A stretch of 64,000 bases of DNA. Source: Gloeobacter kilaueensis JS1. GTDB taxonomy: Bacteria > Cyanobacteriota > Cyanobacteriia > Gloeobacterales > Gloeobacteraceae. The notes under the pieces were generated by a model. The model had not been told where the DNA came from, ran no database searches, and saw only the letters and a list, made by a program, of their open reading frames with translations. A program made the position numbers and the translations under genes. Position 1 is the stretch's first letter, and each line of letters starts with the position of its first letter. This document shows, in pieces, positions 22,689 to 64,000 of the stretch. The DNA lies in NCBI RefSeq assembly GCF_000484535.1, contig NC_022600.1, positions 3,658,001 through 3,722,000 of the forward strand, written 5' to 3'.

Positions 22689-24644
22689 TTACTGGCGCAG
22701 GGCCGCGATGTCCTCGGCAGCGGTGGGTGGTTCGGTCCGGCCACCGAGGTACTTGGCTAGAAACTGCTCGGCGGCGGCGTAGAACTTGAGGCGATTTTCG
22801 GGCCTGACAAAGCCGTGGCCCTCGTCTGCGAAGACAAGGTACTCGACGGGCTTGTTGTTCTTGCGCAGGGCGGCGACGATCTGATCGCTTTCGGCTTTGG
22901 TGACGCGGGGATCGTTCGCTCCCTGGGCGATCAAGAGGGGAGCGGTGATCCGGTCCACCTTGAACAGGGGCGAGCGCGCTTCGAGGTCCGCCCGATCGGC
23001 GGGATTGTCGGGGTTGCCCACGAAGGGGTACCAGGTGTTCGACAGGTACGGCCCCCAGTAGGGCGGAAAGCTTTTGATCAAAGACACCAGATTGGAAGGG
23101 CCGACGATATCGACGCCGCAGCGGAACAGCTCCGGTGTAAAGGTGAGGCCCACCAGCGTCGCGTAACCGCCGTAGCTGCCGCCGTAGATGCAGACTTTTT
23201 TGGGATCGGCGTGGCCCTTGCCCACCGCCCACTGCACCGCATCCACCAGGTCGTCGTGCATTCGGGCAGAAAACTGCTTTTTGGCGGCGTTCTTGAAATT
23301 CTTGCCGAAACCGGTGGAACCCCGGTAGTTGACCTGCAGCACGGCGTAGCCCCGGTTGGCGAGCCACTGCGCCTCCGGGTCGTACCCCCAGTTGTCCCGC
23401 GCCCAGGGACCGCCGTGGACGTTGAGTACCAGCGGCAGGTTCTTCGCCGGGACGCCCACCGGCAGCGTCAGGTACGACGGCAGCGACAGACCATCGCGGG
23501 CCGGAATCTCGACGGGCTGCATCGAGGCAAGCTTGTAGCGCTCGAGTTTGGGGCGGGTGGTGAATAGATACGTGCTCTTTTTTGTCCTGCGGTCCCAGAC
23601 GAAGTAGCGCGTCGGGGCGTTGTCGGCGGTGTAGACCACCAGCCAGCTTTTATCTGCCAGATCGCGGTTGGCAACATCGAAGTTGCCAGGAGAAACTTTT
23701 GCCAGTTCGGCAAAATCCTGCTTCACAGCCGGGTCGAGCACCTGCCAGCGCACCCGGTCGCGGTCAAAGGCAACCGCCTGCACCCGACGGCTGCGCGGTT
23801 CGATAAATAGATCCGCCAGGTCAGTCGTCTTGTCGTCGGCGAGCAGGTTCAATTTGCCTGTCGCTATATCCAGCGCGTATAGACCGAGGGTATCGGCACC
23901 GAGATTGGTGGTGACGGCGATCGTCTTGCCGTCCTTTGAAAAATCTACGGGGTCGAAGGTATCGTCCACCGACCAGGAGATCGCCGTGCGCCAGGGGGCC
24001 TTTTCGTTGTCGCGCAGCTTGAGGTCGCCCCCGCCGGTGGCCTTCAGTTCAACCGCTCCGCGCACCTGAAAATCAGAATCGACCAGCCAGTTGCCGTAGT
24101 TGCCGGGGTTTTCGGCGGCCAGCACCAGTTCACCGCTCACCAGATCCAGCCGGTAGGGCTCGAAGAGGGCCTTGTTGCGGCGATTGAGGGTAATGACGAC
24201 CTGATTGGGGCGCTCCGGCTCCAGCGACAGGAGCGAGGCGCGCACGCCGCTAAAAGGTGTGAGATCCCGCGTCCGGTCCCTGTCTGGGTCAACGGCGTAC
24301 AGGTGATAGTTCTCGTCGCCGTCTTTGTCCTGCAGGTAGAGCAGATCCTGGTTGTAGGCCCAGAGGTAAATGGTGATGCCGCGCTTTTTGTCCTGGGTCA
24401 CCTGGCGATCGTCTTCTTTGCCGATCGTCCGCACCCAGACCTGCAAGATGTTCTGCGCGTCCGCCTTGAGATAGGCGAGCTTTTTGCCGTCCGGCGATAT
24501 CTGGGGGCTGGCCTTCTCAGGATTGTCGAAGAGCACTGCGCGGGGAATCAAAGGCGGCAACTCCGCCGAGGCCGGCGGCACCGTCAGGAGCGAGCAGCCC
24601 GCGAGCACTGCCCCAACGACCAGCGATTTGAGGAGATAGCGCAT
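22689..24644 (-). CDS. S9 prolyl-oligopeptidase family lipoprotein
   Basis: 651 residues from ATG 24644. The N-terminus carries a lipobox (VLAGC, Cys17), so it is probably a membrane-anchored periplasmic lipoprotein. Residues about 50-390 form the beta-propeller (ASPQISPDGKKLAYLKAD; QDLLYLQDKDGDENYHLYAV); the C-terminal hydrolase has the nucleophile in YGGSYGGYATL, aspartate in QGANDPRV and histidine in FADEGHGF. It cleaves oligopeptides or acyl-peptides. Co-directional with the SAM-hydrolase-like gene. Confidence 0.9.
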   Translation of the reverse strand: MRYLLKSLVVGAVLAGCSLLTVPPASAELPPLIPRAVLFDNPEKASPQISPDGKKLAYLKADAQNILQVWVRTIGKEDDRQVTQDKKRGITIYLWAYNQDLLYLQDKDGDENYHLYAVDPDRDRTRDLTPFSGVRASLLSLEPERPNQVVITLNRRNKALFEPYRLDLVSGELVLAAENPGNYGNWLVDSDFQVRGAVELKATGGGDLKLRDNEKAPWRTAISWSVDDTFDPVDFSKDGKTIAVTTNLGADTLGLYALDIATGKLNLLADDKTTDLADLFIEPRSRRVQAVAFDRDRVRWQVLDPAVKQDFAELAKVSPGNFDVANRDLADKSWLVVYTADNAPTRYFVWDRRTKKSTYLFTTRPKLERYKLASMQPVEIPARDGLSLPSYLTLPVGVPAKNLPLVLNVHGGPWARDNWGYDPEAQWLANRGYAVLQVNYRGSTGFGKNFKNAAKKQFSARMHDDLVDAVQWAVGKGHADPKKVCIYGGSYGGYATLVGLTFTPELFRCGVDIVGPSNLVSLIKSFPPYWGPYLSNTWYPFVGNPDNPADRADLEARSPLFKVDRITAPLLIAQGANDPRVTKAESDQIVAALRKNNKPVEYLVFADEGHGFVRPENRLKFYAAAEQFLAKYLGGRTEPPTAAEDIAALRQ

Positions 24645-24710
24645 CAGGACACCGATGAGTGTGTTCCATCTGCCAAAGTACCACCCCAACCGGGCAATCT
24701 AAAACCGAGG

Positions 24711-25037
24711 CTAGCGGTGAGCGACGGTGCTTATCGGCTCGGCAGCGGCCCACTCGCGGCGCGATTTAGCAAGACAGCCGCCGTCAAACTGCTCGCGTGC
24801 CAACTCCTGCGCCCGCTGTTGCGCTTCGAGATACGCTTCGGGCTCAAAGTCCTCTGGACAGCTGGTGAGCAGATAGCGGCCACCGTTGAGGCGCAGGTCT
24901 CTCGTCGCTTTGATCTCGACATCCTTGTTGTCGGCGAACCTGATCTGCAGGTTGCCCACCCGCAGGAGCAACCCATCCTTGCGGTGCTCGACTTTCAGAT
25001 TCCACAGCAAAAACCAGAGCAGTTTCAACAGATCCAT
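24711..25037 (-). CDS. Small protein downstream of PAAR gene
   Basis: 108 residues from ATG 25037, 22 bases behind the PAAR gene stop. It opens with a short hydrophobic segment (MDLLKLLWFLLWNLKVE), then a beta-rich part (LLLRVGNLQIRFADNKDVEI) and a charged helix (AYLEAQQRAQELAREQF). A longer frame from 25118 would overlap the PAAR gene by 59 bases and is unlikely. Function unknown; location suggests a partner, chaperone or cargo of the PAAR protein. Confidence 0.55.
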   Translation of the reverse strand: MDLLKLLWFLLWNLKVEHRKDGLLLRVGNLQIRFADNKDVEIKATRDLRLNGGRYLLTSCPEDFEPEAYLEAQQRAQELAREQFDGGCLAKSRREWAAAEPISTVAHR

Positions 25038-25059
25038 GCAGGTAGCGTCCTTGGGAGAG

Positions 25060-25335
25060 TTATCCGACAAAAGTGTTGGTGCTGGCGCTGGTGCAGACGC
25101 CGGCGCAGTTGTTGGCATCGGTGAGTCGGTGGGCAGGTTTGCCCTCGTGGAAGACCCGCGTAGAGCCGGTGAGCGTTACTGCGCCGCAGTTGACGCCGTC
25201 GCCAATCACCGAGACGAGGCGGCCATTGCAGAACGTCCGGGTGCATTGCATGATCGTGATCGCTCCGGTCTTGACCGTGCAGGGGTTAGAAGGACAGGTC
25301 TCCATATCCCCCTGGCGCGCTTGCGGCAATCCCAT
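25060..25335 (-). CDS. Orphan PAAR-like spike-tip protein
   Basis: 91 residues from ATG 25335, with GGAGG eight bases upstream. It looks PAAR-like: an early QGDMETCPSNPC element, repeated glycine turns (SVIGDGVNCGAVTLTGS), and VFHEGKPAHRLTDANNC, matching the xxNGxPAARxGDxxxC layout. PAAR proteins cap the VgrG spike of type VI or extracellular contractile injection systems with a zinc-bound cone. It is unusually cysteine-rich (seven), possible extra metal ligands. No sheath, tube, baseplate or VgrG genes are visible within the window. Confidence 0.68.
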   Translation of the reverse strand: MGLPQARQGDMETCPSNPCTVKTGAITIMQCTRTFCNGRLVSVIGDGVNCGAVTLTGSTRVFHEGKPAHRLTDANNCAGVCTSASTNTFVG

Positions 25336-25400
25336 CAAAAACCTCCACAGCAAAAGTAACAGCGGTGTCCTAGAACTATAGGGAGAAGGGTTCGCTCAAG

Positions 25401-27245
25401 CTAGGGACTGGTCTGGCGGGGGGTAGCACCGTTTTGGGCGGGTACGAACTGCTCGATCACTGCCTTGCGCAGCAGGGCCGGGGGCAACAACCCCTGCGCC
25501 AGGATGAAGTCGTGGAACTTCTGCTGGTCAAAGCGGCTGCCTAAGAGCTTTTCGGTCTGCTGGCGGAGGTCTGTGAGCCTGGTGTAGCCGTAGAAGTAGG
25601 CGGTGGCCTGGCCGGGGGCGCGGAAGGTGTAGCGCTCGACTTCCTGGTTGGCAAAAGGTTCGGAGAGCACCACGTCCTGGGTGAGCACGCGCATCGCCTC
25701 CTGGGGCGTCACCTTGCCCGACTGCAACTCTGGATCAAGAAAGGCGCGGGCCGCCCGCAACAGCCTGAGCTGCAGCGAGATGAGCTGGCCTTCCGGCGGC
25801 ATAAACGGGTAGGTGATCGCCTCCGAATAAAGCCCCCAGCCCTCGACGTTGGTGCTGTTGAAGGCGTAGATGGCGCGGGCATTGGAGACGCCCTTTTCGA
25901 TAATCGAGGCAAACTGCAGCTCGTGGCCGGGCCGCGCCTCGTGGGCGGTGAGCGTCCAGGAGGCCGCCGCAAAGGTAAAGTCGTTGACCCGCTCGGTCTT
26001 GCCCGCCGGCGCACCGGGAGGGGCCGGAATGACGAGGGGCAAAACGAATTCTCCCTGCTCGCCCTTGTTGCCCAGCAGGCGGGGCGGACGCATGTGGGGA
26101 GCCGGTTGCGCTGCACTCTCGGCGGCACTGGCAAGCACGATCCGGGCGGGCCGACCCGGTAGGGTCACCAGTCGCTCGCTCACGATGATCTGCTCGATCT
26201 GCTTGAGGCGATCTTGATAGTGGGGCAGAATCGCATCGCCCACCAACTGGTCTTTTTTGAGTTCGCGAATCACATCTCGGTAATCGCTGAGGTTGTAGCC
26301 TTTTGCCTTTGCAACCTGCAAGGCAAGCTGCTGCATCTTTTGCTGGATGTCGCCGAAGGCGGCGTGGGCCTGAGCGGTGAGCTGTTCTGGGGGAATATCG
26401 ACGCCCACCTGCTCGAGAGAAAAAGCGTACAGCTCAGGCGGCTCACGAAAATCAGCGCGCGCTTTGGGCAGAATCTCCTTGCGCACAAAGGCGTCGTAGC
26501 TGGCCAGTTGAGCCTTGAGTCTGGCCAGGGGTTGCTGGTAGTCGGCTATCTGGTATTTGGCAAAAAGCTTGTCGATCCCGTCGATGAAGGTGGCACTGTT
26601 GGCTAAATTCTTCTCAACCTCGGCGCGGAACGGATAGAGCAATCCCGGCTGCGCCCGCCGCTCGCGGATGCGTGCCTCCGCCAGGACAACGAGCGGCTGA
26701 TAACCCGGCTCTAAACCGGCGTAGCGCTTGAGGCGCACCAGAGCCGCCGGACGCCGGGCGGGCGCTACTTGATCGTCGAGCAAACTCTGGGTACTGAAGA
26801 AGACCAGTTGCGCCAGATTGAAGTACGGCAACTCGTACTTGCGCTCCAGTTCACTGCCGCGAATGCCTTGATCGGCGGCGCGAATCAGAATTTCAAGATC
26901 CTGGCGCACGAGGGGATCACTCTCGCTCGTAAGACGGCGCTTGAGTTCCGCCGCCACCCTGGCCGTCGCCTGCTGCTGGCGGACATCGTAGCCGCTGCTT
27001 AGATCGATGACTTTTTCATCGAGCCCCTCGACGCCCAACTGCCCGGCCCGCTCCGGCGCGTAGCGGGCAGTCACATCCAGCAGCAACTGGGTATTGGCGT
27101 TGCTGCGCTCAAGCCAGGAGGGGGCAACTGACTTAGAAACGGGCGCTGTACTGGTCTGGGCAAAAACCGCTCCATCCACGAGCGAACCGCTCAAGGCCAG
27201 AAGAGCAGCCCCCAACACAACCGAACGGCGAATCAAAGCACTCAT
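25401..27245 (-). CDS. DUF885-family putative metallopeptidase, exported
   Basis: 614 residues from ATG 27245, with a signal peptide (SVVLGAALLALSGSLVDGAV then FAQ). DUF885 hallmarks: the metal motif LTAHEARPGHELQFA, and the downstream glutamate in NSTNVEGWGLYSEAITYP. Sequence in between is divergent from the paralogue at 18197-19924, and the family's two subtypes (HEVWPGH and HEARPGH) are thus both present. Extended in-frame reading up to 27512 is AT-rich and not family-like. The gap 27246-27569 probably holds divergent promoters, including TTGTA...TACAA symmetry at 27491-27512. Confidence 0.85.
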   Translation of the reverse strand: MSALIRRSVVLGAALLALSGSLVDGAVFAQTSTAPVSKSVAPSWLERSNANTQLLLDVTARYAPERAGQLGVEGLDEKVIDLSSGYDVRQQQATARVAAELKRRLTSESDPLVRQDLEILIRAADQGIRGSELERKYELPYFNLAQLVFFSTQSLLDDQVAPARRPAALVRLKRYAGLEPGYQPLVVLAEARIRERRAQPGLLYPFRAEVEKNLANSATFIDGIDKLFAKYQIADYQQPLARLKAQLASYDAFVRKEILPKARADFREPPELYAFSLEQVGVDIPPEQLTAQAHAAFGDIQQKMQQLALQVAKAKGYNLSDYRDVIRELKKDQLVGDAILPHYQDRLKQIEQIIVSERLVTLPGRPARIVLASAAESAAQPAPHMRPPRLLGNKGEQGEFVLPLVIPAPPGAPAGKTERVNDFTFAAASWTLTAHEARPGHELQFASIIEKGVSNARAIYAFNSTNVEGWGLYSEAITYPFMPPEGQLISLQLRLLRAARAFLDPELQSGKVTPQEAMRVLTQDVVLSEPFANQEVERYTFRAPGQATAYFYGYTRLTDLRQQTEKLLGSRFDQQKFHDFILAQGLLPPALLRKAVIEQFVPAQNGATPRQTSP

Positions 27246-61460: not shown

Positions 61461-62028
61461 TCAGATCTCGCACCAAGGTGTGGCATTTTTGTTTACCGCT
61501 GTAGTAGTGCCTCTGCTTTTTTTGGGCCGTTCGATCGGCACTTCTGTCCCATCGACGACGACCACTTCCAGATGCACATTCGACTGCGTTGCTTGAGGTG
61601 AAGGCAGCCGAAAGCGTCCGGATTGCACCAGCAGTCGCTCGACTTTGTGGACGATACGACAGACGGTCGATTCGTGTATGTCCCAGCTTTGAGCGATGTG
61701 AAAGTGGGTGCGGCCTGCCCCCCGACCTGGCCCCAAACGGGGGTTGGGGGCGAGCAGGGGCATGGGGGGTACTCCCGCGAGTACTGCAGGGCAAGCAGCA
61801 ACTGGTCTTCAGTAGAGAGTTTGGCCTGTCCGCCACGCTTGCCGGTGCGCTCCAGAGTCGGTCGAAGGACATCGACCATTGCCTGGAAGGTTTCAGCTCG
61901 CACACCGCAGAGGCGTTTGAAGTCGGTGGGCTTGAGATGTTGGATATCCTGATAGCTCATCATCAGGGCAGAAAAGCAGTAGTGACCCTACTACTTGTGA
62001 CCCATCCTAGACATTCATGCAAGAGGTC
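61461..62028 (-). mobile_element. Degenerate IS5-family element with split transposase
   Basis: Starting at 61963, MSYQDIQHLKPTDFKRLCGV and LSTEDQLLLALQYSREY are the N-terminal end of an IS5/DDE_Tnp_4-type transposase. A 56-base C-rich insertion at 61713-61768 then breaks the frame; beyond it THFHIAQSWDIHESTVCRIV, VVVVDGTEVPIERPKK and, after a T7/A7 run (61517-61523), QRHYYSGKQKCHTLV resume. The rest is missing. Its left border is probably at 62028 (GACCTCTTGCATG), where the immunity paralogue stops; the right end abuts hemY. Non-functional. Confidence 0.75.
61713..61768. repeat. 56-bp C-rich insertion within transposase
   Basis: Read on the minus strand, runs of CCCCC interleave with TGCCCCTGCTCG and GGTCGGGGGGC, with partial self-pairing (GCCCC/GGGGC). 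It interrupts the transposase between REY and THFH codons, shifting the frame by two. Probable short interspersed repeat or small non-autonomous insertion; borders are plus or minus 2 bases. Confidence 0.6.
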
Positions 62029-62220: not shown

Positions 62221-62778
62221 TCAAGATTTTGGGGGACTTATCAGCGCTTCTATTTGCTCTGTATTTACATCCTTTGTCTTTTGACATAATAACTCTAAGG
62301 TTACAGAGCAAAGGCGCTTAAAGACATTTATAGAGGAGCCAACAACTCCATGAGCAGCATATCTAAATTCTAGTACGCCTTCTCCGATTTGCTGTATAAT
62401 TGGAGACTCAACAGCTTTTTCCAGTACTGCAACTGCGTATTCAGTTGGCAGGCCGGTAAAAATATTATCGAGCCTAGAAGCCAAAGCCCAAGACAGTTCT
62501 CTACCAAGCTTATCTGAGGACATCACTTTTACAAGCAGTTCTCCTGAAATGCAAGGAGATTTGATTTCGGCACCTAGTATTCCACATTGATTCAATCCGC
62601 CTGGAATTAGAATTTCAACAGCAACTTTGCTGATCAATCGTTCATGTTGTTCAGCTAGGATTGGCACTTTCACAATACTTTGCAAAACATCTGCTGCATC
62701 ATATTCGTAGCTAATATCAGGCAATTCGTTGAGCCAAATACGTGCCTGTTTGAACGTTCTTAACTTCAATTCTCTCAT
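62221..62778 (-). CDS. Candidate immunity protein of toxin cassette
   Basis: 185 residues from ATG 62778; this ATG overlaps the stop of the upstream toxin gene (ATGA, 62775-62778), the coupling typical of toxin-immunity pairs. The protein is helical/mixed: KLRTFKQARIWLNELPDIS, LISKVAVEILIPGG and AVAVLEKAVESPIIQQIGEG. No Imm family recognised. GC is clearly lower than in the housekeeping part. An N-terminal paralogue lies just downstream. An in-frame start at 62802 is less likely. Confidence 0.6.
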   Translation of the reverse strand: MRELKLRTFKQARIWLNELPDISYEYDAADVLQSIVKVPILAEQHERLISKVAVEILIPGGLNQCGILGAEIKSPCISGELLVKVMSSDKLGRELSWALASRLDNIFTGLPTEYAVAVLEKAVESPIIQQIGEGVLEFRYAAHGVVGSSINVFKRLCSVTLELLCQKTKDVNTEQIEALISPPKS

Positions 62779-63548
62779 CGCTCTAACCCGTAGAATTCCC
62801 AAAATGGGCGAGAAAATTCACCAGGAAACTGCTTAATAACATCTGGATGATATACACTAAATCGTGAGACGTTATATTTTTTCAGTGCTGCCTCATGTGC
62901 AACAAAATATGCTTCACTAGACTCTATGCCTTGCTCTAACAAAGATTTCATCAATGTTGCTTCCGAAATTTCGTGAGTGTAAAAGCTTGCATCTGAACCG
63001 GAAATTTTTAAGCCATTTGCTAATGCTTCCTCCAATCTGGACACCATAGCAGTATTATACGATATATCGCCAAATTTCATCAGATGCTCTTTTACAATTG
63101 AGAGACCTTTTTCTGTGATTGTAACTTCAAGACCGGCAAGTTTTCCAAATCCTTCACCTCCCGTACGTGCGCCACTCCAAAATGCTCCTGTTGCCCTGAT
63201 AGAATCTCCAACTGCCTCTCGTGCTGCAACTGCAACGACGCCTTTGATTGCTGCAGTCGCCAGGCTCTTAATCAGAAAAACATCAGAGATAGCAAGGGCT
63301 GTATTGAACAGACCCCAACCTACTCGACCATTCTGAAAATCATCGATTGCCTGTCGGCCTGAACCCCAGACGGGAATCAAGCTTTCGAGTAAGCCTGGTG
63401 CTCCAACTCCTCCTGACTCAGTCTGAACCGCGTCGAGTTGCTGAGCGACATTGTTTGCAGGACAGGAAACCGAAAGACTGATATCGGCATTCGGCAAATT
63501 CTGCTCAGCGTTAGAGATGGTGGCCACCAGCCTGGTGATGTCTCCCAT
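62775..63548 (-). CDS. Polymorphic-toxin-like protein with pre-toxin region
   Basis: 257 residues. N-terminus VATISNAEQNLPNADISLSV, then a hydrophobic pre-toxin-like region ESLIPVWGSGRQAIDDFQNG and GLFNTALAISDVFLIKSLAT, similar to segments preceding C-terminal toxin domains in Rhs/polymorphic toxins. The C-terminal 110 residues contain FYTHEISEATLMKS, AYFVAHEAALKKYNVSRFSV and YHPDVIKQFPGEFSRPFWEF; the His-Glu-x-x-Glu plus distant His-Glu would allow a metal site, but I cannot assign the enzyme class. It is co-transcribed with the upstream partial gene (3-base gap) and the downstream immunity candidate. AT-rich composition suggests recent transfer. Confidence 0.62.
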   Translation of the reverse strand: MGDITRLVATISNAEQNLPNADISLSVSCPANNVAQQLDAVQTESGGVGAPGLLESLIPVWGSGRQAIDDFQNGRVGWGLFNTALAISDVFLIKSLATAAIKGVVAVAAREAVGDSIRATGAFWSGARTGGEGFGKLAGLEVTITEKGLSIVKEHLMKFGDISYNTAMVSRLEEALANGLKISGSDASFYTHEISEATLMKSLLEQGIESSEAYFVAHEAALKKYNVSRFSVYHPDVIKQFPGEFSRPFWEFYGLER

Positions 63549-63551
63549 TGC

Positions 63552-64000
63552 TCAGCTGCCCCTACTCAGTCGGTGCCAGTGATCGGAGCGCTCTTGCACT
63601 TCCTGCCAATCCTGCACAGTCGTTCTGCCAATCAAAGCTCGTACTCTTCTATTTGGATGAATGGCCGGGTCGTTGAGAACAGCCTTGATCCGGGTATGTT
63701 CATCGAAGTTTGGTGCAAACTCGAACATTAAACCCACGAAGGCCGTGAGGCTCGATTCCCAGGTGATGCCATAGCGCCTGGCCTGCTGCAGCCCAAAACG
63801 GACACGACTTTTTAGCTCAGTGTCAGATAACGTTGAAACACTGCCCTCGTGATGGGTTCTCAAGTGCTTGAGCAGTTTTTCGACAAAGGCCGCCTCGGCC
63901 AGAGAATAGAACGCGCTTTCATGCTCCTGTCGTATTCTGAACGCCCGCTCTGCTTTCGTCCTCTCTGTTCCCTGCTGTGCTGTTCGTTCATCGCCTGCAA
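63552..64000 (-). CDS. Toxin-cassette accessory protein, partial at window edge
   Basis: The frame is open from 64000 to a TGA at 63552; its start lies beyond the window, so at least 148 residues. The upper part is charged and helical (FRIRQEHESAFYSLAEAAFV, EKLLKHLRTHHEGS) and continues into RVRFGLQQARRYGITWESSL, TAFVGLMFEFAPNFDEHTRI and NDPAIHPNRRVRALIGRTTV. I recall similar proteins next to PAAR/polymorphic-toxin genes of other bacteria, but did not name a Pfam family. The internal TTG at 63863 is not the true start. Confidence 0.6.
   Translation of the reverse strand, partial: AGDERTAQQGTERTKAERAFRIRQEHESAFYSLAEAAFVEKLLKHLRTHHEGSVSTLSDTELKSRVRFGLQQARRYGITWESSLTAFVGLMFEFAPNFDEHTRIKAVLNDPAIHPNRRVRALIGRTTVQDWQEVQERSDHWHRLSRGS

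What the first reader, a model, noticed from the sequence alone, without database searches (positions are those of the whole stretch)
24711..25335. Orphan cysteine-rich PAAR protein with a small partner
A standalone PAAR-like tip protein (seven cysteines) is followed by a 108-residue protein with a short hydrophobic start. There are no tail genes in the window. PAAR proteins recruit effectors to contractile injection systems; cyanobacteria are known to have extracellular/thylakoid-type systems. The toxin cassette at the right end raises the question whether both serve one machine.
Basis: partly seen in the sequence, partly recalled or inferred. Interest (0 to 1): 0.5.

Follow-up and report, generated by a model that had tools for sequence, protein, structure and literature searches.

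The report
Stray spike-tip gene with dedicated partner
This is a genuine, cysteine-rich version of the sharp tip (PAAR protein) of a phage-tail-like injection machine, found beside a small unstudied partner protein in one ancient branch of cyanobacteria, whose machine genes are scattered over the chromosome instead of sitting together.

Summary
Window 25060-25335(-) encodes a 91-residue PAAR protein (Pfam E 1.4e-11; the best AlphaFold model matches solved PAAR tips at Z 13-15), followed after 22 bp by a 108-residue protein without Pfam or PHROGs match. "Orphan" is true only of the window. The genome carries a contractile injection system split over three distant loci: sheath/tube/cap, VgrG, and gp25/baseplate-J. 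No PAAR-like ORF was found in these. In a same-order relative VgrG, PAAR, a gp25-like gene and J are contiguous, so this PAAR is best read as the displaced spike tip. The partner is a Gloeobacteraceae family (5 of 388 cyanobacterial genomes searched). All 6 credible copies sit directly beside a PAAR gene, in three gene arrangements, which argues for joint function. The tip is unusual: with only two histidines it cannot form the usual three-histidine zinc site, and it has seven cysteines. One viral contig has a similar cysteine-rich PAAR followed by a faintly similar gene. The partner's mechanism is not shown; a spike-tip adaptor or needle extension is most likely. The right-end "toxin cassette" does belong to tail biology: it continues past the window with a DUF4123 adaptor and a gp19 tube gene. 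Whether it uses this PAAR is untested.

The parts
25060..25335 (-). PAAR spike-tip protein, 91 aa, seven cysteines (type A)
   Evidence: PF05488 E 1.4e-11; AlphaFold pLDDT 92.4 in the best of five models; Z 15.3/14.9/14.6 to 4jiw/4jiv/4ku0; seven cysteines kept in 4 of 4 genus members compared
24711..25037 (-). partner protein, 108 aa: hydrophobic N-terminal helix, about four beta strands, C-terminal helix (low-confidence model)
   Evidence: homologues beside a PAAR in 6 of 6 credible copies; model pLDDT 60, pTM 0.31; no Pfam or PHROGs family for the window protein
25401..27179 (-). upstream neighbour on the same strand, DUF885 family protein (not part of the system as far as shown)
   Evidence: PF05960 E 1.6e-91
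22689..24644 (-). downstream neighbour on the same strand, S9 prolyl oligopeptidase (not part of the system as far as shown)
   Evidence: PF00326 E 7.6e-49; the stretches around its best homologues in G001, G003 and G004 hold no DUF885 match
63552..64000 (-). 3' part of a DUF4123 effector-adaptor gene (its start, at 64526 in window numbering, is beyond the window)
   Evidence: PF13503 E 5.9e-37
62775..63548 (-). 257-aa toxin-like protein of the right-end cassette
   Evidence: position in the gp19-DUF4123 cassette; no Pfam or PADLOC match
62221..62802 (-). 193-aa presumed immunity protein of the cassette
   Evidence: position only; no Pfam or PADLOC match

Best explanation
The 91-residue protein is the spike tip of the genome's own dispersed contractile injection system. 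It caps the VgrG trimer made from a locus about 0.87 Mb away and is thrust into the target membrane when the sheath contracts. Its metal site has been rebuilt with cysteines. The small partner is a dedicated accessory of this tip. I think it most likely binds PAAR at the VgrG-PAAR junction as an adaptor or short needle extension, with its hydrophobic helix for oligomerisation or membrane contact. Shown: PAAR family match and predicted fold, presence of the injection genes, no PAAR-like ORF in those loci, conserved pairing. Inferred: docking on this VgrG, the cysteine metal site, and the partner's role.
For: PAAR fold: Pfam, AlphaFold pLDDT 92.4, Foldseek TM 0.76-0.84 to the four best PAAR chains, Z 13.5-15.3 to five and 12.4 to a sixth. 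Machine present: sheath PF04984/PF17482, gp19 tubes, Pvc16_N, VgrG (Phage_GPD + Phage_base_V), CIS_tube, gp25, Baseplate_J, Tail_P2_I, in three loci. PAAR is absent from them: only 2 PF05488 hits in the genome, both elsewhere, and PAAR profiles found no ORF in L030, L031, L062, L063 better than E 0.97 and 0.072, against 1.1e-36 and 2.6e-26 for the window ORF. In G007 of the same order VgrG, PAAR, a gp25-like gene (likeness by eye) and J are contiguous. Published order LysM-VgrG-PAAR-gp25-J (PMC4122934 passages). Pairing: 6 of 6 credible partner copies beside a PAAR; order PAAR-partner in 4, partner-PAAR in 1, divergent in 1. G005, a draft of the same family (93% complete, 8% contamination), has no PAAR, partner, sheath, VgrG or J hit. 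PAAR/sheath co-occurrence at E up to 0.001: 63 of 68 against 95 of 320, Fisher P 5.6e-23 without correction for kinship.
Against: No direct evidence that this PAAR binds this VgrG. A second PAAR with its own partner exists in the genome, so the window copy may be an alternative tip. The partner's model is poor (pLDDT 60, pTM 0.31). Tests for a VgrG-like needle were negative or weak: 8-residue periodicity P 0.13, hhalign to VgrG tails probability 1.6%, P 0.032. VgrG tails are short in the five partner genomes (173-197 residues from the OB start), but one of five other genomes measured has 191, so the 'missing piece' idea is not clean. Only one of five AlphaFold models of the PAAR was confident (92.4, 69.6, 34.6, 32.7, 32.5), and the alignment consisted of PAAR homologues. 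Most sheath-bearing genomes (95 of 158) have no PF05488 match at all, so PAAR is either missed or dispensable there.
Confidence: 0.6

Rival explanations
1. The window pair is an alternative, cargo-specific tip: the second PAAR (161 aa, in L032) is the housekeeping tip, and the cysteine-rich pair carries its own cargo, for instance the right-end toxin through its DUF4123 adaptor.
For: Two PAAR-partner pairs of different type in one genome. The right-end cassette has a gp19 tube protein and a DUF4123 adaptor about 37 kb away. DUF4123 was found in the own genome only, 1 of 59. Some PAAR subtypes are reported near DUF4123 genes (PMC8651086 passages).
Against: G001-G003 each have a single PF05488 match, of the cysteine-rich type, and no DUF4123, so type A does not need the cassette there and is the only tip found. 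37 kb is not linkage.
Confidence: 0.2
2. The partner is itself a small effector (toxin or membrane-active protein) delivered on the PAAR tip.
For: A gene beside PAAR is a usual place for cargo (recalled); the hydrophobic N-terminal stretch is kept in 6 of 6.
Against: No toxin family match. The genes on the partner's other side differ between loci, so no candidate immunity gene travels with it (judged from gene calls). All 14 invariant columns lie in the first 66 residues, unlike a variable toxin on a constant leader.
Confidence: 0.15
3. The pair is a domesticated remnant of a phage tail and no longer serves a machine.
For: PAAR relatives occur on viral contigs, with a possibly similar neighbour in L085.
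Against: dN/dS below 1 in PAAR and partner; pair kept in 5 genomes that all have sheath, VgrG and J hits; the window neighbours tested are peptidase-type and SAM-hydrolase-type genes, not phage genes.
Confidence: 0.08
4. The partner is a chance neighbour unrelated to PAAR.
For: None found; its sequence has no known family.
Against: 6 of 6 credible copies adjacent to PAAR in three different arrangements; the top-ranked non-family ORF of 5583 (redundant set) lies beside a viral PAAR, though at E 0.77.
Confidence: 0.04

Closest known systems
PAAR spike tips VCA0105 (4jiv), c1882 (4jiw), T4 gp5.4 (4ku0), phiKZ gp163.1 (6p1z)
   Same: Predicted cone fold over residues 3-91, rmsd 1.1-1.5 A
   Different: 21-27% identity; only two histidines in the whole protein and seven cysteines, so no three-histidine metal site
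IglG / DUF4280 cysteine-ligand PAAR-like tips (PMC5014421, passages seen)
   Same: Cysteines in place of the three histidines; a genetically linked partner (IglF) proposed as cargo
   Different: The window protein matches PF05488 and not DUF4280; IglG binds IglF through an N-terminal extension, which the window PAAR, starting at the PAAR domain, lacks
Cis10, the PAAR-like tip of the Anabaena thylakoid injection system (PMC8894136, outline, passages and section 8 seen)
   Same: Tip of a cyanobacterial contractile injection system
   Different: Named there as one of the genes of the main cluster; here the tip gene is displaced and has a partner family not found outside Gloeobacteraceae among 388 cyanobacterial genomes
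Gloeobacter phage-tail-like element of Sarris et al. 2014 (PMC4122934, passages seen)
   Same: Lists three separate loci in Gloeobacter violaceus and reports PAAR as missing from some cyanobacteria
   Different: The passages seen name no PAAR or partner locus for Gloeobacter; this report supplies it
DUF2169-PIPY (DUF4150) spike chaperones (PMC11883445, outline and abstract seen)
   Same: An accessory protein strictly linked to a PAAR-like tip gene
   Different: Neither the PAAR nor the partner matched DUF2169 or DUF4150 in the Pfam scans

Membership tests
PAAR_motif (PF05488) | HMM match above the curated cut-off | tested here: met
   44.8 bits against 27
PAAR_motif (PF05488) | conical PAAR fold | tested here: met
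   Best AlphaFold model pLDDT 92.4; Z 13.5-15.3 to 4jiw, 4jiv, 4ku0, 6p1z, 9f4b. A prediction, not a solved structure
[quoted passage not shown]
   Only His 63 and 69 in the whole protein, so three histidines are impossible. Cys 77 lies at a column that is Cys in 17 of 18 rows of A4. Cys 14 aligns with the first His in A2 but not in A4; Cys 50 aligns with the Cys next to the second His. A cysteine-only site is inferred. This departs from the canonical site, not from the fold family
DUF4280 PAAR-like (IglG) | DUF4280 HMM match | tested here: not met
   Pfam scan at E up to 10 lists PAAR_motif only
Contractile injection system (eCIS/tCIS type) | sheath, tube, VgrG, gp25, baseplate J and Pvc16-type cap in the genome | tested here: met
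Contractile injection system (eCIS/tCIS type) | PAAR encoded within the structural cluster | tested here: not met
   No PAAR ORF in the sheath, VgrG or baseplate loci; met in G007. In the literature PAAR is not universal in such clusters
Thylakoid-anchored CIS (tCIS) | Cis13 transmembrane fibre and Cis12 extension | not tested
   No search for Cis12 or Cis13 was made
Type VI secretion system | TssJLM membrane complex | not tested
   No search made; the baseplate, sheath and cap families found are of eCIS type
VgrG/gp5-type beta-helix needle (for the partner) | repeat similarity to spike beta-helices | tested here: inconclusive
   8-residue periodicity P 0.13; hhalign P 0.032, probability 1.6%; weak Foldseek rows 3wit and 4s37 at E above 1 from a poor model

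The most novel reading that the evidence does not exclude
A three-part spike: the partner oligomerises into a short beta needle with a hydrophobic helix that sits between VgrG and a cysteine-metal PAAR cone. It would be a separately encoded, exchangeable needle segment, also used by some viruses (L085), letting Gloeobacter swap tips without changing VgrG, and letting the gp19-DUF4123-toxin cassette at the window's right end be loaded.
Probability: 0.2. Interest if true: 0.6.

Novelty: new variant of a known kind. Interest (0 to 1): 0.42.

Why it matters
Gloeobacter belongs to the earliest-branching cyanobacteria and has no thylakoids (recalled). A dispersed injection system with two tip modules there bears on what cyanobacterial injection systems did before thylakoid anchoring. 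A dedicated tip partner would be a new piece of the spike, the part that decides what is delivered. The pair also suggests why a PAAR gene could seem absent from some cyanobacterial clusters: it can lie far away.

Tried and rejected
Needle-extension idea: period-8 hydrophobicity test not significant (P 0.13), only the ordinary beta alternation (P 0.037); hhalign with VgrG tails P 0.032, probability 1.6%; VgrG tail lengths overlap (173-197 in 5 partner genomes; 191, 218, 234, 242, 299 in 5 others; the pattern found VgrG in 10 distinct genomes from 17 loci scanned and missed the rest, G007 among them).

Third partner copy at G000:C1:751092: rejected, antisense to a 124-aa ORF that looks like a membrane protein. 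Designed-repeat hits 6xr1/6xr2 of the partner profile: rejected as helix composition. "Tail terminator gp51" (36za, E 0.021, profile positions 4-65; 0.036 with the L085 row added) and PF23840 (1 of 6 members, E 0.026, under cut-off): kept as a lead only.

Viral pair: L085 PAAR is 34% identical to the window PAAR over residues 6-87. Of its 5 cysteines four share a column with Cys 14, 19, 50 and 77, and the fifth lies two columns from Cys 31. Its next gene is the best non-family ORF of 5583 (a redundant set, since loci overlap), but at E 0.77, and hhalign gives P 0.013, probability 3.3%. No other viral relatives of either protein (each finding only itself). No sheath match on that record; five proteins of its first 20 kb gave only PHROGs of unknown function or none. 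Partner in phage and plasmid records and viral contigs: none (rests on two short peptide patterns).

S9/DUF885 neighbours: no DUF885 match beside the best S9 homologues in G001-G005, so no empty site could be read. No promoter or terminator consensus beside the pair.

Print check: Gloeobacter with "contractile injection system" 1 paper, a toxin database, listing only; Gloeobacter with eCIS 0; Gloeobacter with PAAR 17 listed, of which only PMC4122934 was opened, in passages.

Full report
What is there. Window 25060-25335(-) encodes a 91-residue protein that passes Pfam PAAR_motif at 44.8 bits (cut-off 27), and 22 bp further on 24711-25037(-) encodes a 108-residue protein with no Pfam or PHROGs match. 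An AlphaFold model of the first from an 18-row alignment has pLDDT 92.4 in the best of five models (the others 69.6 to 32.5). It matches solved PAAR tips: Foldseek TM 0.76-0.84 to the four best chains, and Z 15.3, 14.9, 14.6, 13.6 and 13.5 to 4jiw, 4jiv, 4ku0, 6p1z and 9f4b, 12.4 to a P1 baseplate chain and 6.3-8.1 to three further spike-tip entries, with the unrelated rows at Z 2.4 or less.

The window lies in a single 4,724,791-base chromosome. The size fits Gloeobacter kilaueensis (recalled, not from a call).

The machine. Searching the own genome found one sheath match (3517042), one VgrG (2816305), one Baseplate_J (2899479) and two PAARs (3683177 in the window; 222567). Gene calls and Pfam around them show: a Pvc16_N cap, sheath, three gp19 tube genes and two small paralogues without Pfam match in L030; CIS_tube protein, VgrG and a 1880-aa low-complexity protein in L062; gp25, Baseplate_J, Tail_P2_I, DUF4159, WD40 and Ig-like proteins in L063. 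PAAR profiles found no ORF in these stretches (best E 0.97 and 0.072, against 1.1e-36 and 2.6e-26 for the window ORF). In G007, same order, VgrG, PAAR, a gp25-like gene (by eye) and Baseplate_J follow each other directly, which is the order described as conserved (PMC4122934 passages). That paper lists three separate loci for Gloeobacter violaceus and says PAAR is missing in some cyanobacteria. So the cluster seems to have broken at the PAAR, and the tip gene now lies elsewhere. The split itself is therefore known; the PAAR-partner locus is not named in the passages I saw.

Co-occurrence. Among 388 cyanobacterial genomes, 68 have a PAAR match and 158 a sheath match at E up to 0.001. Of the 68, 63 also have a sheath, against 95 of the 320 without PAAR; Fisher P 5.6e-23, not corrected for kinship. 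The five exceptions are G011, G102, G148, G259 and G348; G011 does have VgrG and Baseplate_J matches. Conversely 95 of the 158 sheath genomes have no PF05488 match, so the family is not universal or not always recognised.

The partner. A protein search of 59 relatives found it in 5, and a profile search of 388 cyanobacteria again in 5: four of the genus and one of another genus of the family. Seven places were listed there; one is antisense to another ORF and is discarded. The six credible copies all adjoin a PAAR gene: PAAR then partner on one strand in the window and in G001, G002 and G003 (gaps of 22, 13, 13, 13 bp); partner then PAAR, overlapping, in the second own locus L032; and divergent in G004. 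G005 of the same family, a draft, has no match for PAAR, partner, sheath, VgrG or Baseplate_J. In G003 the pair lies about 2 kb from the VgrG gene. The first 66 residues hold all 14 invariant columns: a hydrophobic start and a beta-rich middle ending in a cysteine. The model of the partner is of low confidence (pLDDT 60, pTM 0.31).

Two tip types. The window PAAR and those of G001-G003 (91-92 aa) share seven cysteines (4 of 4). The second own PAAR and that of G004 have a long insert and the histidines of the usual type. PAAR tips bind zinc by three histidines and one cysteine (passages of PMC5014421, and PMC8651086). The window protein has only two histidines in all, 63 and 69, so it cannot do this. 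Its Cys 77 lies at a column that is Cys in 17 of 18 aligned PAARs. A cysteine-only metal site, as shown by others for IglG, is inferred.

A possible wider family. The closest viral PAAR (L085, 34% identity) has five cysteines, four in the same columns as Cys 14, 19, 50 and 77, and its next gene has a similar layout. That gene is the best-scoring non-family ORF among 5583 ORFs (a redundant set) of the fetched loci, but at E 0.77; hhalign P 0.013, probability 3.3%. The coincidence of rank and place is suggestive, not proof. The record shows no sheath match, and the five proteins scanned from its first 20 kb gave nothing of known function.

How it may work. Best reading: the window PAAR caps the VgrG of the dispersed machine, and the partner is a dedicated accessory at that junction. 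I tested whether the partner is a VgrG-like needle piece and could not support it; it remains the boldest reading. Against the simple reading stands the second PAAR pair, which makes an alternative tip possible.

The toxin cassette. On the minus strand it runs gp19 tube protein with C-terminal extension (lying from 517 bp outside; PF06841 E 3.8e-28), DUF4123 adaptor (PF13503 E 5.9e-37; ends at window 63552), a 257-aa toxin-like protein (62775-63548) and a 193-aa presumed immunity protein (62221-62802). The last two have no family match, so toxin and immunity are readings from position. DUF4123 was found in 1 of 59 genomes, the own one. So the cassette is tied to tail biology by its own genes. 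That it uses this PAAR, 37 kb away, is not shown.

Verdict. A real PAAR with a dedicated partner, part of a known kind of machine, in an unusual variant: displaced, cysteine-rich and partnered.

Noticed in passing
window 62221-64000 and L155 3222-6237: Toxin cassette whose upstream part, outside the window, is a DUF4123 adaptor and a gp19 tail-tube protein with a C-terminal extension; DUF4123 seen in 1 of 59 genomes.
   Followed up: partly
L062 10342-15984: 1880-aa repetitive, proline/glutamate-rich protein beside CIS_tube and VgrG; large proteins sit in the same place in G001, G003, G004 and G007.
   Followed up: no
L063 226-4517: WD40-propeller and Ig-like proteins in the baseplate locus, possible target-recognition or cage parts.
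   Followed up: no
L030 14267-15047: Two small paralogous proteins without a Pfam match after the tube genes; similar ones in G007 by eye.
   Followed up: no
L085 1594-2333: Viral contig with a cysteine-rich PAAR followed by a gene of partner-like layout.
   Followed up: partly
L036 9857-10782: In G004 partner and PAAR are divergently arranged, unlike the genus.
   Followed up: yes
window 61493-61963: Weak transposase-type helix-turn-helix match beside the toxin cassette (PF13613, under cut-off).
   Followed up: no
window 22689-27179: The pair sits between DUF885 and S9 peptidase genes on the same strand with gaps of about 65, 22 and 66 bp, perhaps one transcript.
   Followed up: partly
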